Below are positions 42,816 through 59,956 of a DNA stretch of 59,956 bases, one piece after another (position 1 is the first letter of the stretch; the number at the start of each line of letters is the position of its first letter). The stretch comes from Leptospiraceae bacterium. Its GTDB lineage: Bacteria > Spirochaetota > Leptospiria > Leptospirales > Leptonemataceae. The stretch lies in NCBI GenBank assembly GCA_026418015.1, contig JAOACE010000010.1, positions 1-59,956 on the forward strand, read 5' to 3'. The translations under genes were made by a program, and so were the position numbers. The notes beneath the pieces are model-generated. The model was not told the DNA's origin, did not search any database, and saw nothing but the letters and a program-made list of their open reading frames with translations.

Positions 42816-42844
42816 CCTTTTAAATAAATAATTAAAGATCCTAT

Positions 42845-43066: not shown

Positions 43067-43201
43067 TTTATAGAACAAAATACCTAAACCCGCTGTCGCT
43101 AGATATATTTTTTCTCCAATTCTATCTTTATCAATATCAATTTAAAGAACAAAATACCCAAACTCCTTGTATTAAAGAATTCAATTTCTTGTATGCTCGC
43201 T

Positions 43202-43557: not shown

Positions 43558-44553
43558 TCACCAGTTAGAAATATAAGGTTCATAACTTCTTTCTTTTAAA
43601 AAATGTTTATAAAGTTTATAACATTCAATTCTTAAGAGCTTTCTGTAAGAAATTTTCCCTAAATGTTTATAATTAATCGTTGTTGATAATTTACTTTCGA
43701 AGGCATCGATAAAAATTTGTTTGCCTTTTTCGTTCAAATAGGTATATTCAATACTTTCTTCGAAATGCTTTTTTTGAATCTGATTTTTATTGATTAAGCT
43801 AAAAATGATTCTATCAACAATAATAGGTTTAAAGACTTCTGCAATATCTAAGTTTAAACTAAAACTTCGTTGATTTGTTTCGTGTAAATAACCAATTCTT
43901 GGATCTAAATGTGTGCGATAGATTTGCGAAAGGATGGTTGTATAAAGTAATGTATTACCAAAACTGATCAACGCATTGATGGGATTATCGGGTGGTCGTT
44001 TTGTTCTTTTGTCAAAAAAGAAATCGTTATTGTCTAAGATAACATTAAAAGCTTCGTAATAGATTTTTCGAATATCGCCTTCTAATGCCATCAGTGTTGG
44101 TATATCTTGAATCGATTCTATATTTAAATATTTTGTTTCGATGGTGTTAATGTATGGTTCTACGAGTTCTTCTTTTGTTTTTTTGTAATATTTGAGGTTT
44201 TTTAAAATATTTTGTATTGCTCCATCTACAAAACTTTTAGCTAATTTAAGTCTTTCTTTTTCGTCCAAAAAACATTCTGCTTGTTTTAGTATGATGATTC
44301 CAGAGTTATAATATTCGCGTGGATAAAAACAACCAATATAATATCCATAGTGATTGTAAAAATAAATAGGAATTTTTTGTGATGTTAAAAACTCTAATGT
44401 TCTTTTGTTAATGTCTAATTCCCCGAAGATATGAATTTCTGATACTGCATTCACTGGGATGTTTTTCTTTTCTTCTTCGCTTTTAATAAAATATAATGAA
44501 TTATCTTTTCGTTTTAATTCACCATTGTTGAATATATATATGGGTTTTTTCAT
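43558..44553 (-). CDS. cas1: CRISPR-associated endonuclease Cas1 (type I-B)
   Basis: 331 aa from ATG 44553, chosen because TTGGAG lies at ribosome-binding distance and the protein then starts MKKPIYIFNNGELKRKDNS, the normal Cas1 start. Metal ligands are visible as Glu in ALEGDIRKIYYEAF, His in GYLHETNQRSFSLNLD and Asp in LDIAEVFKPIIVDRI. With Cas2 it inserts new spacers at the leader end. Starts immediately after the cas4 stop. Confidence 0.96.
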   Translation of the reverse strand: MKKPIYIFNNGELKRKDNSLYFIKSEEEKKNIPVNAVSEIHIFGELDINKRTLEFLTSQKIPIYFYNHYGYYIGCFYPREYYNSGIIILKQAECFLDEKERLKLAKSFVDGAIQNILKNLKYYKKTKEELVEPYINTIETKYLNIESIQDIPTLMALEGDIRKIYYEAFNVILDNNDFFFDKRTKRPPDNPINALISFGNTLLYTTILSQIYRTHLDPRIGYLHETNQRSFSLNLDIAEVFKPIIVDRIIFSLINKNQIQKKHFEESIEYTYLNEKGKQIFIDAFESKLSTTINYKHLGKISYRKLLRIECYKLYKHFLKERSYEPYISNW

Positions 44554-44555
44554 AA

Positions 44556-45056
44556 TCAACTCCAACACATATCTTTGTATGCACAATTAGAACAAAAAGG
44601 TATTTTGATTGGCTCTGGTGGAATATCAAACTGTATGATCTTTTTTATATTAGTTATCGCATTTTCTAATTCTTTTTCCACTTCTGGTGTGAGTTTTACA
44701 ATTTCTTTTTTTCTTTCTTCGGGAAAGTGTAGTTCGCCTTCTAGTTCGACACCTTTTTGCTTCATATAGTAGAGATAAAAGGCTAATTGCATTTGAGCAC
44801 TTTTAAGATTGTATTTTGATGATTTTTTGATTTCTCCAAGAACTTTTTTAGGATAAATAATATCAATTTTGATTTGGTTATTGATGAAAAATTCTTTTTT
44901 GTTTCGCTTGTAAAAGATTTCGTGGATATGTCTTCCTAATTTAAGAAAATTGTTTTCTTGATCGGGTTCGATGGAATGAGCAATTAACCAAACCTGTCTG
45001 GTACAAATATAATAATACCAAACCATGGTTCCGTTAATTTTTTCTAGAAGGTCCAA
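44556..45056 (-). CDS. cas4: CRISPR-associated Cas4 exonuclease
   Basis: 166 aa. An Fe-S cluster is implied by Cys18 (YICTRQVWL) and the C-terminal CSNCAYKDMC; the nuclease core has GRHIHE, IDIIYPKKVLGEIKKSSK and MQLAFYLYYM, the RecB-like active site. Cas4 trims prespacers and selects PAM-containing ends. It overlaps the end of cas3 by 13 bp. Confidence 0.94.
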   Translation of the reverse strand: MDLLEKINGTMVWYYYICTRQVWLIAHSIEPDQENNFLKLGRHIHEIFYKRNKKEFFINNQIKIDIIYPKKVLGEIKKSSKYNLKSAQMQLAFYLYYMKQKGVELEGELHFPEERKKEIVKLTPEVEKELENAITNIKKIIQFDIPPEPIKIPFCSNCAYKDMCWS

Positions 45057-47431
45057 TGCGAATCTCCTTGCATTTTGTATCCTGTCATTTCGTCGTAGAA
45101 AAATTCTAATTGTGAATTTTCTATGTAAAAAGTATGATCTTCTACGGGTGGTGGATTTTTTGTAAAAATGGGAACAGAGATCACATAGTTATAAAAATCA
45201 TTTCGAATTTGTAAGAATTCTTTTCTTCTTTCGAAGAGGTTTTTGTTTTGTTTGATTCTTTTAAATTCCTGCCAGATTTTTTTTGCATCTTCGTCGTATT
45301 CAACAAAAACATCGTATTCGGGATATTTTGTTTCTATAAGTTGAAAGTCTGATATAAATGATTCATCTTCGTTTTTTTCTCCATCGTATTTTAGTTTATA
45401 AACAGATTCGAGAATTTTTTCGGAATCTATTTGGTTCATTTTATCTTTTGCTTTTTTATAAAATTCATCTAGTAATTGATAGATTTCGTTTTCGTTGTAT
45501 TGATTTTTCGTAGATAATAATTTTGCTGTGATGTCGATTAATACGGGATCATAAATTCTATTGGCAAATAACTTTTCTTCTTCGTTTACTAGTCGAAAGA
45601 TTTTTACCATACCTTTTTTATCTTGTGCATTTCGATTACAACGACCTGCGGATTGAATAATCGAATCAAAAGGTGCTATATCTCGAATTACTACATCAAA
45701 ATCGATATCAACCCCAGCTTCTACGAGTTGGGTAGATACAACAATTTTATATTTGTTTTGTTTGATTTCTTCGATTCGCTTTAATCTTTGCTTAGGAATA
45801 AGATGAGTACTAAGATAAGTCTTTGGAACGGGTAAATCACTAAGTAAATCGAAAAATTCTTTTGCGGATTTGATGGTATTAAAGATAAATAATATGTTTT
45901 CGTTTGTAGAAGATATCGTCTTTTCTTTTAATTGGGGTAGAGTTAAAGATTCTAAGTTGGATATAATTTCTATTCGATCAACTTTTTGTTGGTATTTCTC
46001 TTCGTTTGTAAGAGAGATGATAGGATCGCTTTTTTTATCGAAAATCAATGGATTTGTAGCAGTCATAATGATGATGTAGCTATTAAGCATCTGTGATAGG
46101 GTTAGTAAGATTTCTTTGGTTATCTTCCAATATTTTACGGGAATTGCTTGTATTTCGTCTAAAATGATGATAGAATTTGTTAATCAATGAAATTTTCGAA
46201 TGTTACTATTTTTGTATGCAAGTAATGTATGAAAAAGTTGGACGAATGTTGTAATGATGATTTCTGAATTCCAGCCTTCGATTAGAATTTTCGCTTGTTC
46301 TGGTTCGTATTCGATGATTTCGTCATCATTCTTATCTTGCCAATTCGAAGAGTATTTTGATGCATCTGTTTTTGATTCGTTCTTTTGTTTATAGCTCATT
46401 TCGGAAAGATGATGATGAATTAAAAATAAATCTGATGTTGGGATTAAAGAATTATATTTGATAACATCTTCGATTACTTTGGCGTTTTGATCAATAATAC
46501 TTAAGAAGGGAAGAGAATAAATGATTCTTGGGTTTATTCCCATTGCTTTTAGTCGATTTTTTAGTTTTAGAGCAAAGGATAATCCGTTTAGAGTTTTTCC
46601 TAGTCCCGTCGGTATGTTGATTAGATATAGTTTTTGGTTCAGATCAATATTATAAGAATCTACTTCTTCGAAGGCTTGTTTTCGCAGTTGGTTGATAAAG
46701 CTATCAGAATAATTCATTTTTGATAGATAATTTTTTACCCAGTTCTCTTCGTTGTAATTTCTTCTTTCGAAGGCTTTTAAATCACCAATTACTACTTCGC
46801 TTTTATCTGCATCCAACAAAAGAGAGTAGAGAAGGTTTAGAGTTATATAATTTTCTATGTTGGAGGTTTTTCTTAATTGTCTTTTTATGGGTTTAAGTTC
46901 ATTGGGAAAATCGTTGATCCATTGTTCAATCAATTTTTTGTTGAGTAATACTGGAAGTCCCTTCTTATAGAGATTTTCTGCAAGAATATTAAAAGAACGA
47001 TCGTCTATTTCTTCGAGCTGTTTAAGCAAAAATTCTTTTTCTTCTTCGTCAAAAATTTGAGTTTCTTCTAAGATACTTTTTAAGTTGCTATGATGTCGTC
47101 TAACAGAAACATAACAAAAGAAAGATAAGAGATCATCTTCTGTTTGTGTTTTACAAATATAATAAGAACAAACAGCAGAAAACTTTGTATGTTGAGTTTT
47201 TTTAGCATTTTCATTTGATTTGGATGTAATGTAATCTTGAAAGGATCGCGTAGCTTTTCCTAAATCATGCGTAAATCCTGCAATTTTCGCCACTGGTAGA
47301 AGCTTTTTTTGTATGGATTCTGGTTTATCGCGTAAGAAAAATTCTATCAGGTTTGCTACGTTAATCAAATGTTCATCAAGAATTTTGTTGGGATGAGAAA
47401 ACAAATTAGAAGAAAACAATGGTTCCTCCAT
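45044..47431 (-). pseudogene. cas3: cas3 (HD nuclease-helicase) interrupted by an in-frame TGA
   Basis: Reads as one frame of 795 codons except for a TGA at 46,184-46,186. The upstream part (415 aa) has the HD nuclease (DEHLINVANL, GFTHDLGKA, RRHHSNLK), Walker A IPTGLGKTLNG and QLFHTLLAYKNSNIRKFH. After the TGA the same frame continues LTNSIIILDEIQAIPVKYWK (the DExx box), then MTATNPLIF and QLVEAGVDIDFD through QSAGRCNRNA. Related Cas3 proteins have Arg at the stop position, so CGA to TGA is the simplest event. Unless read through or a sequence error, interference would be lost. The 5' end overlaps cas5 by 26 bp. Confidence 0.92.
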
Positions 47432-48128
47432 TTTCTAGTTTATAAGCTGTTTTGATTTGACCAGAGATATATTTCGCATCTGGTTCATAGATGATGTCGT
47501 CGTAAATTTCTACTACGCGATCTTTATTCATCTTGATAGGCATTTTATCTTTAAAATATTTTTTGTTTGCTTCGAGTTCAATTCCCGATTGTCCTAAACT
47601 TTTTTTAGGTACCACAGTGCAAATTTCTCCTTCGTAGTTTTTGATTTCTTCTGCCTCGAAAACCCCGACGAACCGAAAGTCTGCTAATAATTCGCTTAAA
47701 CCTAAGGATACCGTATAAAAACTACGATGGGATTGAATATATTTTGTGATTGTCTGAAAGATATTTGAATCTTCGTGTGCTACAAAAATTCTATAAATAG
47801 GAGATTTTACAAATTCTGCACGTATTTGTGTTCGCGGTTGGTACGACTCATCTTTTATTAGACGAAAGTATTTTTTGTCGTTTTTTGTGTTAATAAAATT
47901 TAACCCCATACGGATTTTTTTTACAGGTTTTCGAATTTGTAGGGCAATTTTACAATTTTCGTATCCAAATACTTCTTGGTTTTCGTTTTTTGGTGTTCCA
48001 TAGATTGCCCCTAAGATTCCCGAAATCGTAGGGGGTGGGGGAAAAGAAAAAGTCAAGGGAGATGTAGTGGTAAAATATTTTCTAAAATGAGCAAAGTCTC
48101 CGTATAAATCAAATGTTAGGACTTTCAT
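47406..48128 (-). CDS. cas5: Cascade subunit Cas5 (type I-B)
   Basis: 240 aa. MKVLTFDLYGDFAHFRKYFTT at the N-terminus and the glycine-rich SGILGAIYG (about residue 37-45) are the Cas5 RAMP hallmarks, with SLGLSELLADFRFVG later. It caps the 5' handle of the crRNA. Lies 9 bp after cas7. Confidence 0.94.
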   Translation of the reverse strand: MKVLTFDLYGDFAHFRKYFTTTSPLTFSFPPPPTISGILGAIYGTPKNENQEVFGYENCKIALQIRKPVKKIRMGLNFINTKNDKKYFRLIKDESYQPRTQIRAEFVKSPIYRIFVAHEDSNIFQTITKYIQSHRSFYTVSLGLSELLADFRFVGVFEAEEIKNYEGEICTVVPKKSLGQSGIELEANKKYFKDKMPIKMNKDRVVEIYDDIIYEPDAKYISGQIKTAYKLENGGTIVFF

Positions 48129-48137
48129 AAATTGATC

Positions 48138-49049
48138 CTAAAAAACAAATTCTTTTAATGGAAGACCTTTTAATGCCTCAGATAGAGTAATGTCTTTTCC
48201 ATCGAGGACAAAATTCACTCTTTCGTCTACTTTGTATTTGATGGATTCGATTTTATCTTGATGGTTTTTTAGAACATTTACAAGTTTTGTAATATCGATT
48301 TTTAAATCGGATATATCGCGTAAAGCTTCGTCTTGTAAATCAGATTGAATCGAAATATATTTATCGAGTTCTCCGATGAAAAAGTTTTGGTTTTCTTTGT
48401 AGATTACTTGCATAAGAAGACGAGGCATTTGACCAAATTTTGTCCCAGAAATTAAATTTTTTGTTCCATTCCAAATTCCTTCCATCATAAGATCGATGTC
48501 ATTATTGGTTAAGGGAATGTTTTGCATTTTTGCTGCGTTTTCGTTTACTATTCCATAAAATGCAATCAAGGAATAGGGAAGAATATAACGTTCTGTAAAT
48601 GTTCCTTGTTTTTTTTCTTGTCCCGATGGCATAACTGTGGTTCCTTTGATATAGGTTAAGTCTACTTTATGAAGGGATCTACCAAATTTGAATTGTACAG
48701 GTCCAGTTAGTGCTAAGGTTTGATTTTCCACTGCTGTTGTAGAACCAAAAAGTCTTATATCAATGCATTTGTTTATGATGGAATCTTTGCCTAATTGCTT
48801 CATTCTTTCTTCTTTGGTTATTAGGTTAGAATCTTCTTTTCTGATTTCGCGAATAAAGATTTCTTGATTTTTATATTCGTAGAGATAATCTCTGATGGTT
48901 CTTTTTAACCTAACATCTGTTACGATGTTCTCGTTTGTTTCTTCGTCAATTCTTGGTTTATTTTCGTCTACGGGATCGCCATTAGGGTTTCCATCCTTTA
49001 CATCGTAAAGGAATAAAATCTCTGACCGGTTTTGAATCACGTTTTCCAT
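48138..49049 (-). CDS. cas7: Cascade backbone Cas7 (Csh2 type, I-B)
   Basis: 303 aa. RSEILFLYDVKDGNPNGDPV and RVDEE-like PRIDEETNENIVTDVRLKRTIRDYL are diagnostic of Csh2. RLFGSTTAV and LTGPVQFKFGRSLHKV follow. Several copies wrap along the crRNA. AGGAGGATTAG precedes the ATG. Confidence 0.95.
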   Translation of the reverse strand: MENVIQNRSEILFLYDVKDGNPNGDPVDENKPRIDEETNENIVTDVRLKRTIRDYLYEYKNQEIFIREIRKEDSNLITKEERMKQLGKDSIINKCIDIRLFGSTTAVENQTLALTGPVQFKFGRSLHKVDLTYIKGTTVMPSGQEKKQGTFTERYILPYSLIAFYGIVNENAAKMQNIPLTNNDIDLMMEGIWNGTKNLISGTKFGQMPRLLMQVIYKENQNFFIGELDKYISIQSDLQDEALRDISDLKIDITKLVNVLKNHQDKIESIKYKVDERVNFVLDGKDITLSEALKGLPLKEFVF

Positions 49050-49381
49050 TCTAATCCTCCTTAATTTTTAAAATAATTTTATAAAATATTATAAATTATT
49101 TTGTTTAGTTTATTAATTTGTAAAATTTAATTTGTAATCATGAAACCTATCCAATTTTATAAAAAAACATTTATTAGAAAAGTTCATCTTTGATCATTTT
49201 TTGCAAATCTTATTGGTTCATAATTTTTGTTATAAATACAAAATGCAAGATGAGGCTGAATTGTTTTCCACTAATAAGCCATCATACTTTTATTAGAAAG
49301 TGATCTTAGTTCAAATTGATTTTTATTTCCAATCATAAACAAAAAGATTCTTACTTCGCATCTTGCATGATCTTTATATAG
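49050..49381. other. 332-bp gap inside the cas operon with a 10-bp inverted repeat
   Basis: Between cas8b and cas7, in an operon whose other genes overlap or nearly touch. No credible reading frame. ATGCAAGATG (49,243-49,252) and CATCTTGCAT (49,359-49,368) form a perfect inverted repeat 126 bp across, with TATTAGAAA repeated inside and near it. It could be a short non-coding insert or an RNA stem downstream of cas8b. Confidence 0.6.
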
Positions 49382-51094
49382 TTATTTTTGTTTTGCATAG
49401 ACGATTTCGGCAATTTTGTCTGCAAGATTCAATCCGCATGCAAAGTAATAGTTGATTTCGTCAACAGACATTTTCCAGTTGTCTCCTGCTTCTAATAAGT
49501 ATTTCGAAGCTTCTTCTGCAATTTGTCTTTTCCCCTTATCGAAGGAATCGTATTCTTCGAGTTTGTTTTGAACTTCTGCTAAAAGTCCTTTGATGTCTAT
49601 TTCGTTCATTTTTAGGTTTTTTAGTTTCTTCATAAAAGGTTTAGAACTTCTTTCTGTATATTGTTTATTTAGAAGCATTTGGGTAAGAATCCCCAGCAAA
49701 AATATGCCTCGTCTTTCTGGTTTGCTAAAGGATTTTCCGTATTTTGTAAAAAACTCCTCGAATGAACTTTTTTCCATGTGAACCTCCTCAAAATCGATTA
49801 ATTGAAGTTTTTCGAAAAAACTAGTGCACATCATCGCATCGTTAATTCTAAAAAGATAATAACCATCATTTGTGAATTCTCTTCGAATTACTTGCATGTA
49901 AAATTTTGCAAGAAAAGAAAAATCAATCTTTTTGCCAAGGAATACCGCATCGACAATTTCTAAAAAGTATTTATCCAAGTCGTGATTTCTTTTCCCTTCG
50001 TCAGACTTAGAAAAGAAAGTACGAATTTTACCAAAAGTGAATACAAAATGAATTTTTTGATCTTCTTGTTGTGTTTCGTAGAGTTTATCGACATACGATT
50101 TTGCCTCAAAGATTTTTCTTAATCGAGAGGGCAAAACATCTTCGATTAAGAGTAAGATTCTTTCTGCACTCTGCTGTGTTTGTAGAAAAAGAAGATTCAA
50201 AGCAATGCTGTCAGCTTTTTCTGTAAAAAATTCTAATATTTCGTTTTCGTCGTTAGTGATTTTTTTAATGACATTATTTTTAAGAGAGATAATTTTTTGG
50301 GAATCTTTTAGAATATCGATAATTTCTCTTAGTACTTCGTCATTTTCTGATAAGGATTTTATGATTAACTGATACTTTAATCCGTAAAATTTAAACGTTA
50401 GTTTATTATCGATAAAATCTCGTCCTTTTTTCATTAGGGCTCTACATTCATCGCATACAGGAATGTTTTTCCAATAATTTTCTTGATTAAAGCCTGTGAT
50501 AAAACCGGGTTTGTCATCAGTATCAAAGTTGTAGACATTCGTTCTTGCAGAGATATTTTCTTTTGTTTGACCACAAATAGAACAAACTTGATCTTTTGTT
50601 GCAGATTTTTTCGGTTTATTTTTTTCTATGATTTGATATACTTTTCGAATCACCTCATCATCGCCTAAGTATTTATCTTGGAGCTTGATTGTTAGAAATT
50701 TGCTTTCTTTTTTGGGAATTTCTTTTGATTTTTGTTCAATCGATGTAATGAGATTTTCTTTGTTTTTTCCTAGTGTTTCAAGGATATTTTGTAGAACACT
50801 TTTTTCGTTTAGAGAGAGTTCTTCTTGTTCGATAGCAGTATTAAACCACCTACTAATTTTTTCGAAAGTTTTTTCTGGCTGTGTTAATGGTGCAATCGGA
50901 GCAGTTTTATTACCCTTGGTTGCATCTTCCCGATAAAGGTATCGACCGATGAGTTTTTCTTGAAATTGTTCTATATCAATAGAATTAAATGAATAATCTT
51001 CGTTTAAGTTTATAGCAATCAAATAACCACCAATGGATTTTGTGATGTTTTCGGATTCTGTTAAAATACCGATTTTTACTACATCGTACAACAT
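49382..51094 (-). CDS. cas8b: Cascade large subunit Cas8b (Csh1/TM1802 type)
   Basis: 570 aa. First gene of the leftward operon. A four-Cys zinc site, CSICGQ (about residue 172) and CDEC (about 216), lies in the first half. FKFYGLKYQLIIKSL, ERRGIFLLGILTQMLL and INYYFACGLNLADKI near the C-terminus match the Csh1 pattern. Cas8b reads the PAM and recruits Cas3. AAGGGTAATTGT precedes the ATG. Confidence 0.88.
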   Translation of the reverse strand: MLYDVVKIGILTESENITKSIGGYLIAINLNEDYSFNSIDIEQFQEKLIGRYLYREDATKGNKTAPIAPLTQPEKTFEKISRWFNTAIEQEELSLNEKSVLQNILETLGKNKENLITSIEQKSKEIPKKESKFLTIKLQDKYLGDDEVIRKVYQIIEKNKPKKSATKDQVCSICGQTKENISARTNVYNFDTDDKPGFITGFNQENYWKNIPVCDECRALMKKGRDFIDNKLTFKFYGLKYQLIIKSLSENDEVLREIIDILKDSQKIISLKNNVIKKITNDENEILEFFTEKADSIALNLLFLQTQQSAERILLLIEDVLPSRLRKIFEAKSYVDKLYETQQEDQKIHFVFTFGKIRTFFSKSDEGKRNHDLDKYFLEIVDAVFLGKKIDFSFLAKFYMQVIRREFTNDGYYLFRINDAMMCTSFFEKLQLIDFEEVHMEKSSFEEFFTKYGKSFSKPERRGIFLLGILTQMLLNKQYTERSSKPFMKKLKNLKMNEIDIKGLLAEVQNKLEEYDSFDKGKRQIAEEASKYLLEAGDNWKMSVDEINYYFACGLNLADKIAEIVYAKQK

Positions 51095-51520: not shown

Positions 51521-52030
51521 TTAGGCAGCTGGACACAAAAACTCACTATAAACTTCTAAATTTACATGACTCAACCTGTTGTGGCAAGAATAATTATTCT
51601 CAAACTGGATATAGGCATGTATCACCTCTTCCTCAGGTGTTAATGTGGGTCTAATTATGATGGGTTCTATGGGGAATTGTTGTTCTTGCATTTCCCAGTC
51701 GAGCATGATGCGAAGGATAAAACTCATGGAATAACCGAGGAAAAACCTCAGATCATACAACTTGCCCCAATGTGTTGGATTTATTCTTATCTTTCTTATG
51801 ACATAGTTTTTTGTTCGAGGTTGATAGGTTGCTGTCAACGTTCTCTTTGTGGGGGATTGGCTAATCTTATAAAGATATGCTAAATATCGTTTAAACAAAT
51901 AATCAACCGTTAAAGAAAGATCTCCATTAAATCGCGTTTCTGTTAAATAAATCAAAAACTGATAGTGAAACAGAGTTATATTGATTGACGTAATACATTC
52001 CTCTTGGGTAAAAAAGTGTTGTGTTCTCAT
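51521..52030 (-). CDS. DUF1564-like small protein, paralogue of 5094-5609
   Basis: 169 aa. Same architecture as the protein at 5,094-5,609: a helical N-terminus ending YLAYLYKI, then TATYQPRTKNY, a basic strand and INPTHWGKLYDLRFFLGY before SFILRIMLDWEMQ. It sits upstream of cas8b on the same strand, where many I-B operons carry cas6. It lacks the length (about 220-250 aa) and the C-terminal glycine-rich loop of Cas6, so it is not a Cas6. Function unknown. Confidence 0.68.
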   Translation of the reverse strand: MRTQHFFTQEECITSINITLFHYQFLIYLTETRFNGDLSLTVDYLFKRYLAYLYKISQSPTKRTLTATYQPRTKNYVIRKIRINPTHWGKLYDLRFFLGYSMSFILRIMLDWEMQEQQFPIEPIIIRPTLTPEEEVIHAYIQFENNYSCHNRLSHVNLEVYSEFLCPAA

Positions 52031-52072: not shown

Positions 52073-52576
52073 TTATCTAATTTCTATTTTTATGCTAAAT
52101 GAATTCGAAAGAGAAATGATATCCCCAGATTTTATCTTGGTTTTATCGTTAATTCTTTTTTGGTTTACGTAGGTTCCATTTGTGCTTCCTAAATCTTCTA
52201 TGTACCATCCGCTAAGTTCTTTTGTGAATTTGGCATGTTTTCTCGAAACAGTTGGAAAATTTTTTAAATATTCTTTACCTTTTTCTTCTCTTCCTACTAT
52301 ATCTCCAGAAAAGATTTCTAGGCTGAATTCATTGTGCTTTAAGATGATGCTTTCTTTTTTTTCGATAATGGTTTTGTCAGATAAGATTTCTTGTTTTAGG
52401 GACTCTTGTGGGGGTTCTTGTTTGGGAGGAGTTGGAGTTTCGTTTTTGGATTGTTCCACCACATTTTCTTCTGTAATAATAAGAGCATTCGATATATCGG
52501 ATAAGCATTTAAGGCATATTAATTCATCAATAGGATTTTTCGTTCTACAAGTTGGACAAACTCTGTAAGAGCTCAT
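52073..52576 (-). CDS. Zinc-ribbon and FHA-domain protein
   Basis: 167 aa. N-terminal zinc ribbon with CPTC (residues 7-10) and CLKC (about 21-24), a Pro/Gln/Glu-rich linker (about 40-68), and a C-terminal FHA domain (about 78-167). FHA phosphothreonine-binding residues are all there: GDIVGREEKGK, SRKHAKF, DLGSTNGTYVN. It should dock a Thr-phosphorylated partner. The 32-bp overlap with the upstream radical SAM gene and the PP2C gene in the same operon suggest a phospho-signalling complex. Confidence 0.88.
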   Translation of the reverse strand: MSSYRVCPTCRTKNPIDELICLKCLSDISNALIITEENVVEQSKNETPTPPKQEPPQESLKQEILSDKTIIEKKESIILKHNEFSLEIFSGDIVGREEKGKEYLKNFPTVSRKHAKFTKELSGWYIEDLGSTNGTYVNQKRINDKTKIKSGDIISLSNSFSIKIEIR

Positions 52577-53159
52577 TTTTGATTACCTCGCTATCTTTTT
52601 GGTATGGTATGCCAATGATGTAAATTCCCTCATGCTTTTGAATGACTTGTAAGGTTTTGTTCTTTTTCGATTGTATCCATCTATCATAATCATCTTTTAA
52701 GTTTTCGCTAAATACAAAAATTCGTTGGTTTTCGGATCCTTTATAACTCCATTCGCTTTCTAATCCATCCATAAAAGGTCCGTCAATCAACGCATCTATC
52801 AAAGATAAATGTTCTGGATACTTTTTTTGTAGTTTTTCTATGGTATATCCAGAGTAAATCAAAATATCATCAAAATCCTTGCGAATGGCTTTTAAAAATT
52901 CTAAAAGTGGGGCGGGTTGATCAAATGGTTCGCCTCCACTGATGGTCAATCGTTTGCAGGGAAATTGCTTTATGATTAGAGCTAAATCTTCTATTTGCAT
53001 CGCTTTATTCTGATCAAACTCCCAGGTATGAAAAGAAATACATCCATTGCATCGAATGCTACAACCTTGTGTCCATACCACTATCCTTTCGTGTGGTCCA
53101 AGTACATAAACAGGATAGTGGATCAAACTAATCAAAATTGAGTTTTTCTTAGGTTGCAT
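52545..53159 (-). CDS. NrdG-like radical SAM activating protein
   Basis: 204 aa. TQGCSIRCNGCISFHTW (about residues 30-46) holds the CxxxCxxC 4Fe-4S motif, and TISGGEPFDQPAPLLEFL the SAM-binding GGEPF. This is the anaerobic-ribonucleotide-reductase-activase/PFL-activase group, which generates a glycyl radical on a partner. No glycyl-radical enzyme is in the window, and the gene is embedded in the FHA/AAA+/PP2C operon, so its partner is unclear. Overlaps the AAA+ gene by 11 bp. Confidence 0.87.
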   Translation of the reverse strand: MQPKKNSILISLIHYPVYVLGPHERIVVWTQGCSIRCNGCISFHTWEFDQNKAMQIEDLALIIKQFPCKRLTISGGEPFDQPAPLLEFLKAIRKDFDDILIYSGYTIEKLQKKYPEHLSLIDALIDGPFMDGLESEWSYKGSENQRIFVFSENLKDDYDRWIQSKKNKTLQVIQKHEGIYIIGIPYQKDSEVIKNELLQSLSNL

Positions 53160-54963
53160 GGCCTTCTAATGTCCAACCCTGTTCGGGATCATAATTCAAT
53201 TGAGTAATGGTTACTGTTGATCCCTCTTCGGGGAAGATTTTAAACAAAAGTTGTGTTAGAGGGTTGATCAAAATCAATTCAAGTCTATTACCAATCCCCC
53301 TACCGCCCATGCTTAAATCTTTGATAATTTCCATATAAATTTCTTGCTCAACTTGTGGCGTAAGTTCGAGTTTGATTTTTCTTTCGTCTTCGAGTTTGTA
53401 TTTTAAATTGTTGATCATTTTGTTCATGATTAAGCGGGCATCTTTGGGACGAATAAAATCAAACACTACGATATTTTCTCCGATTCGGTTTAATATTTCT
53501 GGACGAGAGATTTTGAATTTAAAATAATCTTGTATTGCATAGAGTAATTTTTCTTTGATTTTCGGATATTCCATGTTGGGAGAGACGTTTTGAATTCTTT
53601 CTCCCGTGGGGGTTATTTCATAAACCCCTAAGTTTGATGTAAAAATGATCAGACATTCAGAAAAATAAACGGTTTCGCCTTTTCCAGAGGTCAACCTTCC
53701 ATCGTCTAAGATTTGTAGAAATATATCGAGGATTCTTGGATGAGCCTTTTCGATTTCGTCAAAGAGAACCACAGAAAAAGGTTTTTGCTTGATAGCATTT
53801 GTTAGTTCGCCTCCGGTTTCGTATCCCACATATCCTGGTGGTGAGCCTATCAACCTTTGGTTTGTATGCTCCTGAGAAAATTCCGACATATCAAAACGAA
53901 TATAGTTATGTTCACTTCCAAAGATGAGTTCTGCAATACTTTTTGCAAGTTCTGTCTTACCTACACCTGTTGGTCCGGCAAAAAATAAGGTACCTTTGGG
54001 CCTTGTTGAATATTTGGAAAACTGTGAACCAGAAAGGTTAAAATACGATCGTCTAAGAATTGCTGCGGCAACTCTTACCGCTTGTTCTTGTCCAATCACC
54101 CTTTTTCGCAGATGTTCTTCTGCATTGATCAATTTTTCGCGATCGATTTTAGCCCATGGATTATCGGGAACACCTACTTTATATCGTCGAATTGATTCTC
54201 CAATATCTAATATATCGATGTTTTCTCTTATAGAAAGTTGCACAATAGAAACCATTTCGCGAGAATACATTCCTGATGTTAAATCCACGAAACTTTTGAC
54301 TACCTCTTCTTTTTTTTCTTCTGTTATGCCATCCCAGCCCGGAATTCGAGGAAGTACTGCTTGCGCCATCCATCGGCGAATTTCAAAATCTGGTTTCGGA
54401 ATAGAAATATTTCTAACACGAGGATTTTCTAATGTATACCAAGGAGGCATATCATTATCTTTTTCTACTAAAAACATCACCAAATTAAACAAAGGGGGAT
54501 TTCCTAAGGGAGTCTGATTAATCGAAAGTTTAAAGCAATTATACATAAATTCACTATAATCTTTTCCCGCGGAGATTTCCAGTAAGCGAGAAGAGAAGTT
54601 GATAATTACAGCAACCTTATTTTCTTTGTTTTCCATTAGGCGTTCAATTATGCGAAACACTTCGTTTAAAACGACAATTCTGTCGTCAATATATCGTTCT
54701 GTGATTCTTCGAAATAAATCCTGATCTCCACTACAAAGACTAAAACCTTCTAATGGTTTATATTCAACGATCAAATCATAACCTGTATAGTTCAACAACA
54801 TTTCTCCTATAAATTTAGTTAAGGGGTAGGGTATATATTTTTCATTCATTGGAAGAGGAAATACGTCAAAGATATTTCCAAACAAAATGAACTGTGGTGT
54901 TGTCGCTACAAATCGGTGAATTTCTTTGGCAAACTTGGGTAATTTTTCTATATCGTTTTGCAT
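53149..54963 (-). CDS. ClpB/ClpA-like AAA+ ATPase with an atypical N-terminal half
   Basis: 604 aa. The C-terminal half is a full ClpA/B D2-type module: KRVIGQEQAV (about 287), Walker A GPTGVGKTELAKSIAEL (about 325), pore loop GSPPGYVGYETGG, Walker B VVLFDEIEKAHPRILDIF, sensor 1 IIFTSNLG, an Arg in SRPEILNRIGENIVVFDF, then the small ClpB domain with GGRGIGNRLE. The N-terminal 270 residues look like a degenerate AAA domain with no Walker A (FILFGNIFDVF, VAVIINFSSRLLE, FNLVMFLVEKD). It lacks the ClpB N-domain and middle coiled coil. Probably a protein-remodelling hexamer of a specialised system. GGAG precedes the start. Confidence 0.87.
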   Translation of the reverse strand: MQNDIEKLPKFAKEIHRFVATTPQFILFGNIFDVFPLPMNEKYIPYPLTKFIGEMLLNYTGYDLIVEYKPLEGFSLCSGDQDLFRRITERYIDDRIVVLNEVFRIIERLMENKENKVAVIINFSSRLLEISAGKDYSEFMYNCFKLSINQTPLGNPPLFNLVMFLVEKDNDMPPWYTLENPRVRNISIPKPDFEIRRWMAQAVLPRIPGWDGITEEKKEEVVKSFVDLTSGMYSREMVSIVQLSIRENIDILDIGESIRRYKVGVPDNPWAKIDREKLINAEEHLRKRVIGQEQAVRVAAAILRRSYFNLSGSQFSKYSTRPKGTLFFAGPTGVGKTELAKSIAELIFGSEHNYIRFDMSEFSQEHTNQRLIGSPPGYVGYETGGELTNAIKQKPFSVVLFDEIEKAHPRILDIFLQILDDGRLTSGKGETVYFSECLIIFTSNLGVYEITPTGERIQNVSPNMEYPKIKEKLLYAIQDYFKFKISRPEILNRIGENIVVFDFIRPKDARLIMNKMINNLKYKLEDERKIKLELTPQVEQEIYMEIIKDLSMGGRGIGNRLELILINPLTQLLFKIFPEEGSTVTITQLNYDPEQGWTLEGHAT

Positions 54964-54974
54964 AGTGATTCTCC

Positions 54975-55733
54975 TTAGAATAAAATTTTTAAATAGATAA
55001 AACTTACGTTATCTTTTAATGGTTTTTGGTTTAGGGTTTGAATGAGTGCTTCGGATGGTTTTTCTGAACGTAAGCTTGCTTTGATTTCTTCGTCTTCGAG
55101 TTCGTCCCATAATCCATCGCTACAAATTAAAAATACATCGTCAGTAAAAACTTCTTCGATTTCTTTAACGGTGATTTTGGGGATTTCTTCGGAATCATCT
55201 CCCATAATGGCAGAGGTTAAGACACTTCTTTTAGGATGGTTTCTTACTTCGCTTTCTTGAATTAATCCATCCGATAAAAGTTCTTCTACAACAGAATGAT
55301 CTTTACTCATTCGTATCAGTTTACTACCGACATATTTATAAACCCTGCAATCGCCTACGTTAAAAATTTTCGCGTTTTCGTTTTGGATTGTTAGACCAGC
55401 AATCGCACATCCTAAGCCATAAGAATCAGAATGATTTTTTATATAATCGTTCAACCTCTTTTTGGATTCTTGTAGAACATCTTCGATATTTTCGTAGAGT
55501 TTAGCTTTTTTTTCGCGAATTGTCTCTAATACAATTTTGGTGGCAACTTCTCCTTTGCTATGACCTCCCATACCATCAGATACAACAAAAAGAAATTGAT
55601 TCGTTTCTATAATGGCTTCTTTGTAAGAATCAAAATTTTCTTCGAGATACAATTCATCCATTGCCAATATACCATCTTCGTTATTTTGTCTTACCTTCCC
55701 TTTGTTGGTATAAAGATTGTAAAGGATTTTCAT
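54975..55733 (-). CDS. PP2C-type Ser/Thr protein phosphatase
   Basis: 252 aa, a single PP2C domain. Metal-binding and catalytic motifs: VRQNNEDGI, VSDGMGGHSKGEVA (about residue 51), FNVGDCRVYK, LICSDGLWDEL (about 200) and KDNVSFIYLK. It removes phosphate from Ser/Thr, presumably on a protein recognised by the FHA protein of this operon. No kinase is in the window. Its ATG overlaps the stop of the upstream coiled-coil gene (ATGA). Confidence 0.93.
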   Translation of the reverse strand: MKILYNLYTNKGKVRQNNEDGILAMDELYLEENFDSYKEAIIETNQFLFVVSDGMGGHSKGEVATKIVLETIREKKAKLYENIEDVLQESKKRLNDYIKNHSDSYGLGCAIAGLTIQNENAKIFNVGDCRVYKYVGSKLIRMSKDHSVVEELLSDGLIQESEVRNHPKRSVLTSAIMGDDSEEIPKITVKEIEEVFTDDVFLICSDGLWDELEDEEIKASLRSEKPSEALIQTLNQKPLKDNVSFIYLKILF

Positions 55734-57400
55734 AATTCTCTCCTAAATAAGTCTTCGCTTTTTGCTTGTTGGAATCGTTGTTTTGATATTTCTTTTTTTT
55801 CATAGTAAAATTTTTGTTCGGGTTCAATTCGATGTTTTTCTTCTAGGACAATGCCATTTTGTTTTAAGAATTCCAGTAGTTGATCGTATGTTTTACACCA
55901 TTCTTTTCCGATGGTAATGTCTTTTTCTTTTTCGTAAGTAGAAAGCTGATTTTCGTCTTCTACATAACGAACAAACCTTACTGCAAGCATATTTCCTTCG
56001 TATTTCAGTCTTATAACATAATCTTCGCCAAAAGGAGTTCGAATTTCTACCACTTCCCCTTTTTGTAGTTTTTCCATAGCAGATTCATCAATGGTGGAAT
56101 ATCCTAATCGTTTTAGATGATCTTCTATTAGGGATACAAACTTTTTTCTGCCTTCTTCTTTGAGTTTATTCATTTCTATTTCCATTTCTAATTGTGTGAT
56201 TCTCTCTAAGAGTGTATAGTATTCTTCTTTGGTTACAATGTCTTTGTTTAGGAATGTGTTGATTTCTTGTTGAATTTCTGGTACAGAAATTTCTTTGTAT
56301 CGCGTTTTTATGTCTTCTTTTAAGACCTCGGATTCGATGTAAATGTGTTTTGTTCTTGTATAGGTGATTTTGATTTCTTTGTTGATGTAGAATATACGCG
56401 AACTTTCGGATGATTCTTTTAATTCATCGAAAAGTTCTCTGAGTTTTACTGCTTGTTCTTGGTGAATGTTTTTTAGTTTTTCGTAGTATTTTTCTGCTTC
56501 TTCTTTTAGGTGTTGGATTTTTTCTTTTTCTTCTTTTTCTTGTTCTTGCTTTTTTATTTCTTCTTCTTGGATTTTTTTTATTTGGAGTTGATTTTTTAAT
56601 AATTCATTTCCCACTTTGCTTATAGCATTGAAGTATTTTCGCGGAATTTCGTAATAGAATTTTTCTAAGGATTGTAGATCGTTGGTCTTTTTATATTCGT
56701 CGATTTTTTTTTCTACGATTTTTTTTACTGCCTGATGGATTTCTTCTTTTAGGGATTCGAATCCTTTGGGAAGAGCATCGTCTAGTTCGTAAAGTCCTTG
56801 GAGTTGATCTTGATTCAAAAAAGATCTGATTTTATCCTGAACGTATTTGGTGATAAAGTTTTTTGCTGTATCTTTGTATTTCGAAAAAGATTTGGGAATT
56901 TCTTCGTTTAGTTGGATCATCTTTTTTATATCTTCTTTTTCGCGTGCTTCTTGGAGCCTTTTGTTTAGTGTTTCGTGGAATTTCGATTCAATATCTTGTT
57001 TTAGTTTGTGTAATCCTTCTGGTATGCTTTTGATTAATTGATCGAAACCAGACAAAGACCAATCCTCTTGGGATACCATCTCCATGGTTTTAAGAAATTT
57101 TTTGATTTTAAGAGCTATCTCGTTGAAATTTTCAAAATTTTTATTCACCCAAGAGATGTGATAAGCATCGTTTAAAAGAATTTGTATTGTATATCGACTC
57201 AGAAAATCGCGTTTATAGTCTTCTAATGGTTTAATCAATTCTTGTATGTGGCGAAATTCAAAAGAATAACGACGACATATTCTTTCGATTTCTTTGATTA
57301 CGTTATCCATTCTTTCTTGAGCAAGTCTTTTGTTGTTTGCTAATATTACTTCTGGTGGAAGAGGTATTGCTGGACCCCAATTTGCTCTTGCACTACTCAT
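55730..57400 (-). CDS. Long coiled-coil protein, paralogue of 57410-58918
   Basis: 556 aa. No signal peptide. Residues 25-400 are almost entirely charged helix rich in Lys and Glu, with repeated LEKFYYEIPRKYFNAI-like turns. The last 120 residues are a compact domain (LKRLGYSTIDESAMEKLQKG, VVEIRTPFGEDYVIRLKYEG, VRFVRYVEDENQLSTYEKEKD split across two blocks, EWCKTYDQLLEFLKQNG) shared closely with the neighbour gene. Family not recognised; the arrangement resembles a scaffold with a globular C-terminal head. TGAGGTGATTTT precedes the ATG. Confidence 0.75.
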   Translation of the reverse strand: MSSARANWGPAIPLPPEVILANNKRLAQERMDNVIKEIERICRRYSFEFRHIQELIKPLEDYKRDFLSRYTIQILLNDAYHISWVNKNFENFNEIALKIKKFLKTMEMVSQEDWSLSGFDQLIKSIPEGLHKLKQDIESKFHETLNKRLQEAREKEDIKKMIQLNEEIPKSFSKYKDTAKNFITKYVQDKIRSFLNQDQLQGLYELDDALPKGFESLKEEIHQAVKKIVEKKIDEYKKTNDLQSLEKFYYEIPRKYFNAISKVGNELLKNQLQIKKIQEEEIKKQEQEKEEKEKIQHLKEEAEKYYEKLKNIHQEQAVKLRELFDELKESSESSRIFYINKEIKITYTRTKHIYIESEVLKEDIKTRYKEISVPEIQQEINTFLNKDIVTKEEYYTLLERITQLEMEIEMNKLKEEGRKKFVSLIEDHLKRLGYSTIDESAMEKLQKGEVVEIRTPFGEDYVIRLKYEGNMLAVRFVRYVEDENQLSTYEKEKDITIGKEWCKTYDQLLEFLKQNGIVLEEKHRIEPEQKFYYEKKEISKQRFQQAKSEDLFRREL

Positions 57401-57409
57401 AAAATCACC

Positions 57410-58918
57410 TCATAATTGTTTTTTGTGAATTTCTGGTTTTTGTGTTTGCTTTTGACGTTCGTAGAATTTTTCTTTTTTTTCGTAATAGAATTTTTCTTCT
57501 GGCTCTACGCGAAATTTTTGTTCGATTAGAATACCATTATCTTTTAAGTGCTTTAGGATTTGATCAAAAGAGCTACACCATTTTTTAGCGGTAGCAATAT
57601 CTTTTTCTTTTACGTAAGTAGAAAGTTGATTTTCGTCTTCTACATATCGAACAAATCGCATCATAAGTTGATTGTTTTCGATTTTAAGTCGCACAACATA
57701 ATCTTCGCCATAAGGTGTTTTTATTTCTACCATTTCACCGTTATAGAGTTTTTCCATGAGTTGATCATCGATAACAGAATAGCCCAGGTCTCTGAGTTTT
57801 TCGTGGATAAGAGAGATGATATTAACGCGTAGCTCTTGTATAATTCTTTCTTCTTCTTTTTTTAGGATGATGTTTTCGATGGATTGAATCAAATCATCGT
57901 ATTCTTGTTTCGAAACGAATTCTTTTTTTAAAAATTCTTCGACAGCCATTTGTACTTCGGGAATAGGAAAGTCTAAATAATTCGCTTTTATATCTTCTTT
58001 TATGGCTTCGGATTTTATGTATTGTCGTTTTATTCTTGCATATCGTATTTTTATATCCCTTGTGATGTACGAAATACGAGTAAAATCATCGGATTCTTTT
58101 AGTTCGTCGTAATTTTCTTTGATTTGATTTGCTTCGCTTTGGTGGATTTGCAAGAGCTTTTGGTAGTATTTTTCTGCTTCGCTTTTAAGTTGTTGGATTT
58201 TTTCTAAGAAATCATCTTCTTCGCTTTTCTTTTTTTGTGTTGCGAGTTGATGTTTTAGAAGCACATTAGCAATTTTATTTCTTTCTTCTACAAAAGAATC
58301 GGGAATTTCTTTATAGAAATTTTCTAAGCCTTGAAGGTTGTTGGATGCTTCAAATTCTTGAATTTTTTTATCAATTAATTTTAATACTTTTTCCTGGATT
58401 TCTTTTTTTAGCTTAGTACATTCTTTGGGTAATTCTTTTAAAAGATTTTCGAAAGAAGAAATCGATAATTCTTCTTTTTGTTCTAATTGAAGGAGTTGGA
58501 TAAACGTTCTTATGCTTATAGCAGTTTCGTCGAATTCTTGGATTTTTTTGTTCAACCATTCTGGCGAAGATTGATAAACATCGAAAGTAAAACCTCGAAG
58601 AATTTCTTTTTGTTTTTCTTGTAAGATTTCTGTTAGTTCGTGGATGTTTTTCCATTCTTGGGAATAATGACTACATTGATTTTGAATTTTGCTTATGGTT
58701 TTACTAAGACTTTTATTTAACGCGTTTTTCTTTTCGTTGTAGAGTTCTATTTGATTGATTTTTTTTTCGTTTTGATAAGATCGATTTTGATATTGTTGAG
58801 AGTAAACCTTACGCTCTAATGAACGTCTTTTTCGAGTGGCTTCTACTGCGGATGCAACCAATGCAGTTGTTACTATCATTGGTAAAAAGGGAAATAAAAT
58901 TACAGCAGATGCACTCAT
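57410..58918 (-). CDS. Membrane-anchored coiled-coil protein, paralogue of 55730-57400
   Basis: 502 aa. An N-terminal hydrophobic segment (residues 4-25, ILFPFLPMIVTTALVASAVE) is followed by a Lys/Glu-rich coiled coil and the same C-terminal domain as the neighbour: LRDLGYSVIDDQLMEKL, VEIKTPYGEDYVVRLKIENN, MRFVRYVEDENQLSTY, AKKWCSSFDQILKHLKDNG. So one paralogue is membrane-anchored and the other appears soluble. They probably arose by duplication and may form a mixed filament or scaffold. TGAGGTAGAAT precedes the ATG. Confidence 0.77.
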   Translation of the reverse strand: MSASAVILFPFLPMIVTTALVASAVEATRKRRSLERKVYSQQYQNRSYQNEKKINQIELYNEKKNALNKSLSKTISKIQNQCSHYSQEWKNIHELTEILQEKQKEILRGFTFDVYQSSPEWLNKKIQEFDETAISIRTFIQLLQLEQKEELSISSFENLLKELPKECTKLKKEIQEKVLKLIDKKIQEFEASNNLQGLENFYKEIPDSFVEERNKIANVLLKHQLATQKKKSEEDDFLEKIQQLKSEAEKYYQKLLQIHQSEANQIKENYDELKESDDFTRISYITRDIKIRYARIKRQYIKSEAIKEDIKANYLDFPIPEVQMAVEEFLKKEFVSKQEYDDLIQSIENIILKKEEERIIQELRVNIISLIHEKLRDLGYSVIDDQLMEKLYNGEMVEIKTPYGEDYVVRLKIENNQLMMRFVRYVEDENQLSTYVKEKDIATAKKWCSSFDQILKHLKDNGILIEQKFRVEPEEKFYYEKKEKFYERQKQTQKPEIHKKQL

Positions 58919-58929
58919 ATTCTACCTCA

Positions 58930-59956
58930 TTAGGGTTGGGCGTTATTTATTATATACATCATTAAATACAATGCTAAAAAAAGGATGAAAGATAATAAAA
59001 CAATAGAGATGATAGAAAATAATTTTGCACTTACTGGTCTTCGATTTCTATAAAACATAGTTATTAAACTATTTATAATTGATTGTAAGAAGCTAAAAAA
59101 AATAATTATTGTTATGAGACCAACCATACCAGCCATAAAAGAAATAAGTCCCTTTCTCAAGTAAGGACTTATTAGAGAAATAAACTTAATTCCTATTACA
59201 AAAAGAAATGTGAAAAGAGATGTGAAAATTATCTTTCTTAATTTTTTAAAAAATTTTGCATCTTTAAGAGGTACGTTAGATTCAACAAATTTTTTTGCAG
59301 AGTTTGGGGATAATCCAGATTTTTTCCAATCTTTTGCATCGTAAAGAGGGAACCCAGCATTTTTCCAATCTATTGCTTTATTAAGAGAGAAACCAGCATT
59401 TTTCCAATCTTTTGCATCGTTAAGAGAGAAACCAGCATTTTTCCAATATTTTGCATCGTAAGGAAAGAAACCAGCATTTTTCCAATCTTTTGCATCGTTA
59501 AGAGAGAAACCAGCATTTTTCCAATCTTTTGCTTCGTTAGGAGAGAAAACAGCATTTCTCCATTTTATTGCTTCGTTAAGAGAGAAATCACCGTTTTTCC
59601 ATAAAATTGCTTCTACTTTTGTAAATCCTGCGTTACGCCAATCACCAAAACCATATCCCAAAACACTCATTAGATAATAAGCCCTTTCTGGGATTAAACC
59701 AAAGTTTCTAAGTTCTTTTGCATCGTTAAGAGAGAAACCAGCATTTTTCCAATCTTTTGCTTCGTTAGGAGAAAAACCAGCGTTTTTCCATGCTATTGCT
59801 TCGTTAAGAGAAAATCCTTTGGCTACCCAATCATTTGCTTCTCGATAACTCATTCCAGCATTTATAAATTGATCGTATTGTTTTATTACTTTTATAGGAT
59901 TATATCCTTCTTGTATTAAAGAAATGGTTTGGCTAATAAATTCATCTAAGTCGTTT
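58930..59956 (-). CDS. WKNAGFS-repeat membrane protein (5' end beyond the window)
   Basis: The frame stays open to the right edge, so the true start lies outside; an internal Met at 59,853 is not the start, because the repeat pattern (QYDQFINAGMSYREANDW) continues upstream of it. About fifteen 13-residue repeats with consensus DAKDWKNAGFSLN cover roughly 200 residues, then three transmembrane helices at the C-terminus. Each repeat unit is 39 bp and nearly identical at the DNA level (about 59,290-59,860), which implies recent expansion. Likely a helical-repeat scaffold facing one side of the membrane. Confidence 0.82.
   Translation of the reverse strand, partial: NDLDEFISQTISLIQEGYNPIKVIKQYDQFINAGMSYREANDWVAKGFSLNEAIAWKNAGFSPNEAKDWKNAGFSLNDAKELRNFGLIPERAYYLMSVLGYGFGDWRNAGFTKVEAILWKNGDFSLNEAIKWRNAVFSPNEAKDWKNAGFSLNDAKDWKNAGFFPYDAKYWKNAGFSLNDAKDWKNAGFSLNKAIDWKNAGFPLYDAKDWKKSGLSPNSAKKFVESNVPLKDAKFFKKLRKIIFTSLFTFLFVIGIKFISLISPYLRKGLISFMAGMVGLITIIIFFSFLQSIINSLITMFYRNRRPVSAKLFSIISIVLLSFILFLALYLMMYIINNAQP
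59290..59860 (-). repeat. 39-bp tandem coding repeats
   Basis: The 13-codon repeats of the WKNAGFS protein. Plus-strand units of the type CCAGCATTTTTCCAATCTTT recur every 39 bp with few substitutions, and most changes fall in the variable positions between NAGF and the next AK/W. Confidence 0.85.

What the first reader, a model, noticed from the sequence alone, without database searches (positions are those of the whole stretch)
52073..59956. Uncharacterised operon: repeat membrane protein, twin coiled coils, PP2C, ClpB-like AAA+, radical SAM and FHA
Seven leftward genes with overlaps or gaps of about 12 bp or less combine phospho-signalling (PP2C, FHA), a protein remodeller (AAA+ with an odd N-terminal half), an NrdG-like radical SAM protein and structural proteins with membrane anchors. 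PP2C plus FHA occurs in known systems such as type VI secretion control, but no secretion genes are seen here. The set could be a stress, defence or surface-assembly machine regulated by Thr phosphorylation. The role is inference; the gene content and coupling are seen directly.
Basis: partly seen in the sequence, partly recalled or inferred. Interest (0 to 1): 0.85.

Follow-up and report, generated by a model that had tools for sequence, protein, structure and literature searches.

The report
Kinase–AAA+–radical SAM defence-like operon
The seven genes at the end of this contig are one variant of a previously unnamed gene system, found patchily in many bacterial groups, in which a protein-remodelling motor and a radical-SAM enzyme travel with a protein kinase and, in most relatives, a helicase–nuclease, so it is probably a new kind of switchable anti-virus defence.

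Summary
The seven-gene operon is real and is one form of a widespread, apparently undescribed system. Its invariant core is an AAA+ protein (inactive first AAA ring, active ClpB-like second ring) plus a short NrdG/PFL-activase-like radical SAM protein, nearly always with a coiled-coil protein. The core occurs in Spirochaetota, Calescibacterium, Verrucomicrobia-like, Bacillota, Pseudomonadota and Bacteroidota genomes, in two main forms. Split form (this window): membrane Ser/Thr kinase, coiled coil(s), PP2C, AAA+, radical SAM and zinc-ribbon–FHA, all separate. Fused form (73 loci): AAA+, radical SAM, a ~2,100-aa zinc-ribbon–kinase–DUF4011–helicase–nuclease, coiled coil. In the fused form the kinase is mostly dead (DFG Asp lost in 65 of 71), and none has FHA or PP2C. 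The 'repeat membrane protein' is the C-terminal piece of a Ser/Thr kinase cut by the contig end, so the predicted missing kinase is essentially found. The operon lies 1 kb from a type I-B CRISPR-Cas locus. The Hhe-like nuclease fusion, patchy distribution and variable flanks favour an anti-phage/anti-plasmid role (about 0.55), but no activity has been shown, and this window's variant has no visible nuclease.

The parts
58930..59956 (-). C-terminal part (341 aa seen) of a membrane Ser/Thr kinase: linker, decapeptide repeats, three TM helices; kinase domain lies beyond the contig end
   Evidence: Frame open to contig end. Two complete paralogues in the same genome have kinase + decapeptide repeats (L156:9958-12990, 1010 aa, also TM; L157:7446-8864, 472 aa). 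First 27 residues match residues 404-430 of the 472-aa kinase, 48%.
57410..58918 (-). Coiled-coil protein 1 (CC1), N-terminal TM segment, conserved C-terminal domain (aa ~348-502)
   Evidence: C-terminal domain predicted with pLDDT 87, invariant LGY, Asp and Cys
55730..57400 (-). Coiled-coil protein 2 (CC2), same C-terminal domain, no TM
54975..55733 (-). PP2C Ser/Thr phosphatase (Stp1-like), metal-binding Asp motifs kept (SDGMGGH, GDCR, SDG, DN)
   Evidence: NF033484, 8e-47; homologues in L059, L039, L063, L064
53149..54963 (-). AAA+ remodeller: N-half (1-~250) is a degenerate AAA domain without Walker motifs; C-half is an active-looking ClpB D2 type (Walker A GPTGVGKT, Walker B LFDE, pore loop GYVG)
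52545..53159 (-). Short radical SAM protein, NrdG/PFL-activase-like (CX3CX2C, GGEP)
   Evidence: (CX3CX2C in 73 of 73 homologues)
52073..52576 (-). Zinc ribbon + FHA protein, pThr-binding residues kept (GR, SRKH, STNG)
   Evidence: last gene of the operon also in L059
43558..51094 (-). Neighbouring type I-B CRISPR-Cas genes (context, not part of the system): Cas1, Cas4, Cas3 in two ORFs, Cas5, Cas7, Cas8b

Best explanation
The operon is the split, kinase-active form of a conserved accessory system built around a two-ring AAA+ remodeller and a radical SAM enzyme, most likely for defence against phages or plasmids. Proposed working: (1) a membrane Ser/Thr kinase with a decapeptide-repeat stalk senses infection or envelope disturbance and phosphorylates partners, probably the coiled-coil proteins; (2) the zinc-ribbon-FHA protein binds the phospho-Thr mark and brings the marked client to the AAA+ hexamer; (3) the AAA+ protein, with an inactive scaffold ring and an active ClpB-type ring, pulls on or remodels the client; (4) the radical SAM protein installs a modification that licenses the client, possibly on the invariant Cys/Asp of the coiled-coil C-terminal domain; (5) PP2C resets the switch. 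In most relatives the output is a helicase-nuclease. Here the effector is not visible and may be the kinase itself, an unlinked protein or a gene beyond the contig end. Shown: gene set, linkage, domain integrity, kinase origin of the truncated gene, fusion to a nuclease in relatives, correlated absence of FHA/PP2C and of kinase motifs. Inferred: every arrow in steps 1-5 and the defence role.
For: Conserved linkage: 72 of 80 loci have AAA+, radical SAM, kinase-bearing protein and coiled coil; L059 has STK tail-CC-PP2C-AAA-rSAM-FHA in the window's order; L063 and L064 have AAA-rSAM-FHA-PP2C-CC-STK; L039 has nuclease-STK-CC-FHA-rSAM-AAA-PP2C on a small rumen plasmid. Defence link: in 73 loci the third gene is zinc ribbon-kinase-DUF4011-SF1 helicase-MTES_1575 REase, PADLOC Hhe 8e-65 and PDC-S37 9e-139; the separate Aristaeella protein gives Hhe 1e-163 and PDC-S37 E=0. 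A third form pairs AAA-rSAM with an SF1 helicase and a PIN nuclease. Phospho-switch: intact kinases (HRD/HKD...N...DFG) where FHA and PP2C are present (L039, L063, L064; window and L059 judged from paralogues); 65 of 71 fused kinases lack the DFG Asp and 0 of 73 fused loci have FHA or PP2C. Accessory behaviour: strong hits in 10 of 393 phylum genomes, none in three same-genus genomes; no shared flanking genes across genera; plasmid copies. Window context: CRISPR-Cas I-B 1 kb away and a TIR-domain gene upstream.
Against: No experiment. The window's visible operon has no nuclease, helicase or other known effector, and no such nuclease was found elsewhere in the genome (only a sub-cutoff MTES_1575 hit in a methylase-DUF559 protein). 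Known defence genes beside the 70 fused loci are few (about half a dozen of 130 flanking proteins: Wadjet, Kiwa, Septu, PD-Lambda-4, Zorya-like), with no matched control. The kinase/FHA/PP2C correlation may reflect one ancestral change, because the fused form is one clade (support 0.75). Two Burkholderiaceae loci (L075, L136) have a nearly intact kinase (DFS) but no FHA or PP2C. Three Calescibacterium-like genomes carry the AAA+ alone (L060-L062).
Confidence: 0.55

Rival explanations
1. A non-defence envelope or cell-structure signalling system: the membrane kinase, PP2C and FHA control assembly or disassembly of coiled-coil filaments by the AAA+ protein, with radical SAM maturation, in response to envelope or redox stress.
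For: Membrane kinase with repeat stalk, TM-anchored coiled coil and no nuclease in the window. Kinase, PP2C and FHA sets control secretion and envelope processes elsewhere (general knowledge). A coiled-coil protein is present in almost every form.
Against: The same AAA-rSAM-CC core is joined to helicase-nuclease proteins in most relatives, absent from most close relatives, and occurs on plasmids.
Confidence: 0.25
2. Anaerobic metabolism or redox control: the NrdG-like protein activates a glycyl-radical enzyme and the kinase set regulates it.
For: Best family scores are NrdG (4.8e-27) and PFL activase (2e-12); closest solved structure PFL activase.
Against: Far below the NrdG curated cut-off (94.8 of 126.1 bits); no glycyl-radical enzyme among the linked genes in any form; homologues occur in aerobes such as Pseudomonas and Rhizobium.
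Confidence: 0.05
3. Type VI secretion-type phospho-regulation (PpkA-PppA-Fha with ClpV).
For: Kinase, PP2C, FHA and a Clp-family ATPase together.
Against: ClpV model 215.8 bits against a cut-off of 885 and matching the D2 half only; TagH FHA 21.6 against 120 bits; no secretion genes seen beside the operon.
Confidence: 0.02
4. Chance neighbourhood of unrelated genes.
For: None beyond the mixed annotation.
Against: The same set recurs linked in several phyla.
Confidence: 0.01

Closest known systems
Hhe (DUF4011-helicase-Vsr-like nuclease) and PADLOC candidate PDC-S37
   Same: Fused relatives and the Aristaeella plasmid carry a DUF4011-SF1 helicase-MTES_1575 nuclease that scores as Hhe/PDC-S37
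   Different: Hhe is a single-gene system (own knowledge); here it is one output of an AAA-rSAM-CC core, with zinc ribbon and (pseudo)kinase, and it is absent from the window operon
Mokosh
   Same: COG1112-type helicase with Ser/Thr kinase and a nuclease (definition as given in PMC11672841; MkoA hit 2e-46)
   Different: No PLD nuclease; AAA+, radical SAM and coiled coil are extra; no helicase in the window
Dodola (DolA-DolB)
   Same: Defence system with a ClpB-like ATPase (PMC11514479); DolB profile hits the AAA motif region (4e-21)
   Different: Dodola has two genes; no radical SAM, kinase, PP2C or FHA; the N-half of our AAA+ is not covered by DolB
KKP (kinase-kinase-phosphatase)
   Same: Ser/Thr kinase plus phosphatase module with anti-phage activity (PMC11341870)
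   Different: KKP lacks AAA+, radical SAM, FHA and coiled coil, and is prophage-borne
BREX/Pgl (PglW kinase-nuclease, ATPase)
   Same: Kinase fused to a nuclease together with an ATPase in a defence operon (PMC12839542)
   Different: No PglZ, BrxC or methylase here; different ATPase family
Chaperone-centred NTP-dependent conflict systems (Kaur et al. 2020, PMC7159879)
   Same: AAA+ core with exchangeable effectors; one subtype has a radical SAM
   Different: Those use MoxR-vWA or GTPases; no ClpB-type AAA with inactive D1 found described there in the passages searched
ClpB/Hsp104 disaggregases
   Same: D2 ring about 41-47% identical with full motifs
   Different: No active D1, no N-domain or middle domain; N-half is a degenerate AAA domain closest in fold to Rpt/p97

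Membership tests
Hhe / PDC-S37 defence | DUF4011 + SF1 helicase + Vsr/MTES_1575 nuclease | tested here: not met
   None in the window operon; no over-cutoff MTES_1575 in the genome. Met in fused relatives and the Aristaeella plasmid.
Mokosh | COG1112 helicase plus PLD nuclease | tested here: not met
   No helicase or PLD domain in the window operon; relatives have the helicase but an MTES_1575 or PIN nuclease.
Dodola | DolA (DUF6414) with DolB | tested here: not met
   No DolA hit; DolB profile matches only residues 267-445 of the AAA+.
Type VI secretion PpkA/PppA/Fha/ClpV | ClpV and TagH/Fha equivalog scores | tested here: not met
   215.8 of 885 bits and 21.6 of 120 bits.
ClpB disaggregase | Two active AAA rings, N-domain, coiled-coil M-domain | tested here: not met
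   TIGR03346 281 of 1232 bits, matching D2 only; N-half without Walker motifs.
AAA+ superfamily (N-half) | AAA fold | tested here: met
   AF2 pLDDT 89; Foldseek best hits are AAA domains of Rpt/p97, probability 1.00, E about 2e-6, TM about 0.5.
NrdG / PFL activase | Radical SAM CX3CX2C and GGEP motifs | tested here: met
NrdG / PFL activase | Equivalog cut-off and linked glycyl-radical enzyme | tested here: not met
   94.8 of 126.1 bits; no such enzyme among the linked genes.
Viperin (pVip) | Viperin score and C-terminal region | tested here: not met
   21 of 180 bits; PADLOC pVip 8e-6 over the core only.
Membrane Ser/Thr kinase (PF00069) | Kinase domain in the truncated first gene | tested here: inconclusive
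   Domain lies beyond the contig end; tail homologous to two kinases of the same genome.
KKP and BREX/Pgl | Full gene sets (two kinases + PfpC; PglZ, BrxC and others) | not tested
   Compared from the papers only; PADLOC scan of the operon listed no BREX family.
Anti-phage defence system | Protection against phage or plasmid | not testable with these tools
   Needs plaque and transformation assays.

The most novel reading that the evidence does not exclude
A distinct class of bacterial immune system whose invariant engine is a radical SAM enzyme paired with a half-dead two-ring AAA+ remodeller acting on a coiled-coil sensor with a domain of no known fold match. The trigger (active kinase with FHA/PP2C, or pseudokinase) and the output (Hhe-like helicase-nuclease, helicase-PIN, or a kinase/membrane effector) are interchangeable. 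It would be an early case of a radical-SAM-installed protein modification acting as a licensing switch in immunity.
Probability: 0.3. Interest if true: 0.9.

Novelty: new variant of a known kind. Interest (0 to 1): 0.74.

Why it matters
No family, defence library or paper held here describes this gene set, yet the core occurs in at least six phylum-level groups and in genera easy to handle (Pseudomonas, Rhizobium). It joins phosphorylation, AAA+ remodelling and radical SAM chemistry in one module. It also gives a natural experiment: where the kinase is dead, the phospho-reader and phosphatase are gone while AAA+, radical SAM and coiled coil remain, which separates the engine from its trigger. 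The radical SAM substrate is an open, directly testable question.

Tried and rejected
First genome-contig scan with coiled coil 2 found nothing; the alignment of the AAA+ N-half worked. A whole-AAA+ query returns every ClpB, so only the N-half was used. Apparent AAA-rSAM fusion in L133: rejected, an overlapping long frame. Missing rSAM in several loci: mostly an artefact of ORF picking, resolved by a six-frame search; likewise PP2C in L063/L064. Ycf35/DUF1257-like idea for the coiled-coil C-terminal domain: no Pfam support and no PDB fold match better than E 0.17. Homology to the coiled coil of the helicase-PIN form: not supported, hhalign probability 1%. Phages: no match to the AAA+ N-half; one viral contig hit. 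E. coli: no close copy, only a 123-bp Clp match. G393:C9 kinase as the direct upstream part of L059: not claimed, since its post-kinase module duplicates the start of L059, so it may be a tandem paralogue.

Full report
OBSERVATION. Seven leftward ORFs fill 52073-59956 with overlaps or short gaps. Families: zinc ribbon + FHA; NrdG-like radical SAM; AAA+ with a ClpB-type second half; Stp1-like PP2C; two paralogous coiled-coil proteins; a decapeptide-repeat membrane protein. The contig ends at 59956 and the repeat protein's frame runs off it.

THE MISSING KINASE. The whole genome has two PF00069 kinases, and both carry the same decapeptide repeats: a 1010-aa kinase-repeat-TM protein and a 472-aa kinase-repeat protein. 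The first visible residues of the window protein (NDLDEFISQTISLIQEGYNPIKVIKQY) align with residues 404-430 of the 472-aa kinase, just after its kinase domain and first repeats. In Ca. Calescibacterium nevadense the homologous tail (L059) also starts at a contig edge. A kinase in the same genome, 57% identical to ours over residues 5-456, has a nearly identical post-kinase module, but it may be a tandem paralogue. So the first gene is very probably a membrane Ser/Thr kinase cut by the contig end; repeats probably broke both assemblies (inference).

CONSERVED SYSTEM. A relative in the same family (G010, L030) has CC-AAA-rSAM-FHA-STK. tblastn of the AAA+ N-half against plasmids found Caballeronia, Rhizobium and Aristaeella. 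A genome scan found 218 candidates, of which the best 80 were kept. Clustering and six-frame HMM searches show 72 of 80 with AAA+, radical SAM, kinase-bearing protein and coiled coil, with no shared flanking genes across genera. CX3CX2C is present in 73 of 73 radical SAM homologues.

ARCHITECTURES. Split: window; L059 (STK tail-CC-PP2C-AAA-rSAM-FHA); L063 and L064 (AAA-rSAM-FHA-PP2C-CC-STK); L039 (DUF4011-helicase-REase, STK, CC, FHA, rSAM, AAA, PP2C, DUF6273, STK on a 44-kb plasmid record with integrase and WYL regulator). Fused: AAA-rSAM-[zinc ribbon-kinase-DUF4011-SF1 helicase-MTES_1575 REase, about 2,100 aa]-CC in 73 loci. Helicase-PIN form: SF1 helicase, PIN protein, another coiled coil, AAA, rSAM in a group of Spirochaetota; only one PIN protein was scanned, the others judged by position and N-terminal similarity. 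An AAA+ tree puts window and L059 together (support 1.0) and the fused form in one clade (0.75), with split forms outside it.

PHOSPHO-SWITCH. The fused kinases lack the DFG Asp in 65 of 71 (48 G, 13 E, 2 S, 1 P, 1 N) and often the catalytic-loop Asn. None of 73 fused loci has FHA or PP2C. Loci with intact separate kinases (L039, L063, L064, and window/L059 by paralogue) have both; L030 has FHA. Exceptions: L075 and L136 (DFS kinase, no FHA/PP2C). Because the fused form is one clade, this may be a single event.

PROTEIN ANATOMY. AAA+ residues 1-290 fold with pLDDT 89 as a AAA domain (Foldseek: Rpt, p97, PAN; E about 2e-6, TM about 0.5) with no Walker A or B. The second half keeps Walker A/B, pore loop, sensor and Arg residues. 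The coiled-coil C-terminal domain is predicted with pLDDT 87, has invariant L, G, Y, D and C positions in 37 sequences, and has no PDB match (best E 0.17) and no Pfam family. Many coiled-coil proteins begin MSGPK.

DEFENCE CASE. For: the nuclease arm matches Hhe/PDC-S37; patchy distribution (10 strong hits of 393 phylum genomes, none of three congeners); plasmid copies; window context with CRISPR-Cas I-B and a TIR gene. Against: no effector in the window operon; no MTES_1575 nuclease above cut-off in the genome (the one hit is a methylase-DUF559 protein); only modest known-defence content in flanks (uncontrolled).

LITERATURE. Ten searches found no description of this set. The library lacks most subscription papers, so 'undescribed' is provisional. 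Nearest: Hhe, Mokosh (PMC11672841), Dodola (PMC11514479), KKP (PMC11341870), BREX/Pgl (PMC12839542), chaperone-centred conflict systems (PMC7159879). The window fails the defining test of the first three; KKP, BREX and the last were compared from the papers only.

VERDICT. System real and conserved: about 0.97. Truncated kinase: about 0.93. Defence role: about 0.55. Mechanistic order (kinase mark, FHA reader, AAA+ remodelling, rSAM licensing, PP2C reset): inference, about 0.25 for all steps together.

Noticed in passing
window 39371-43255 and 43558-51094: Type I-B CRISPR-Cas with 53 exact copies of the 30-bp repeat GTTTCAATTCCTCATAGGTACGCGATAAAC. Cas3 is broken by one in-frame stop into two ORFs (46184-47431 and 45044-46090).
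   Followed up: partly
window 34422-36421: TIR-domain protein (PADLOC TIR effector 7e-11) followed by a co-directional ORF; possibly another defence pair.
   Followed up: no
window 51521-52030 and L157:8975-9529: Weakly DUF1564-like small ORF next to the operon, and a similar-looking ORF next to the 472-aa decapeptide kinase elsewhere in the genome.
   Followed up: no
L156:9958-12990 and L157:7446-8864: The genome's two recognised Ser/Thr kinases both carry decapeptide repeats of the type noted in DotG/IcmE.
   Followed up: partly
L141-L146: A third form in several Spirochaetota genomes: SF1 helicase - PIN nuclease - coiled coil - AAA - rSAM.
   Followed up: partly
L035:8548-10021: In G035 a coiled-coil homologue is split over three frames (looks decayed) with no AAA+ or rSAM seen beside it.
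   Followed up: no
L060-L062: Calescibacterium-like genomes with the AAA+ alone, without rSAM, kinase or coiled coil nearby.
   Followed up: no
L147, L149-L152: A more distant AAA family shares only the degenerate N-half (E 1e-8 to 1e-11) in other Spirochaetota.
   Followed up: no
L167:3184-6228: A 1014-aa protein fusing a DUF559/MTES_1575-like nuclease and an N6/N4 DNA methylase in the same genome.
   Followed up: no
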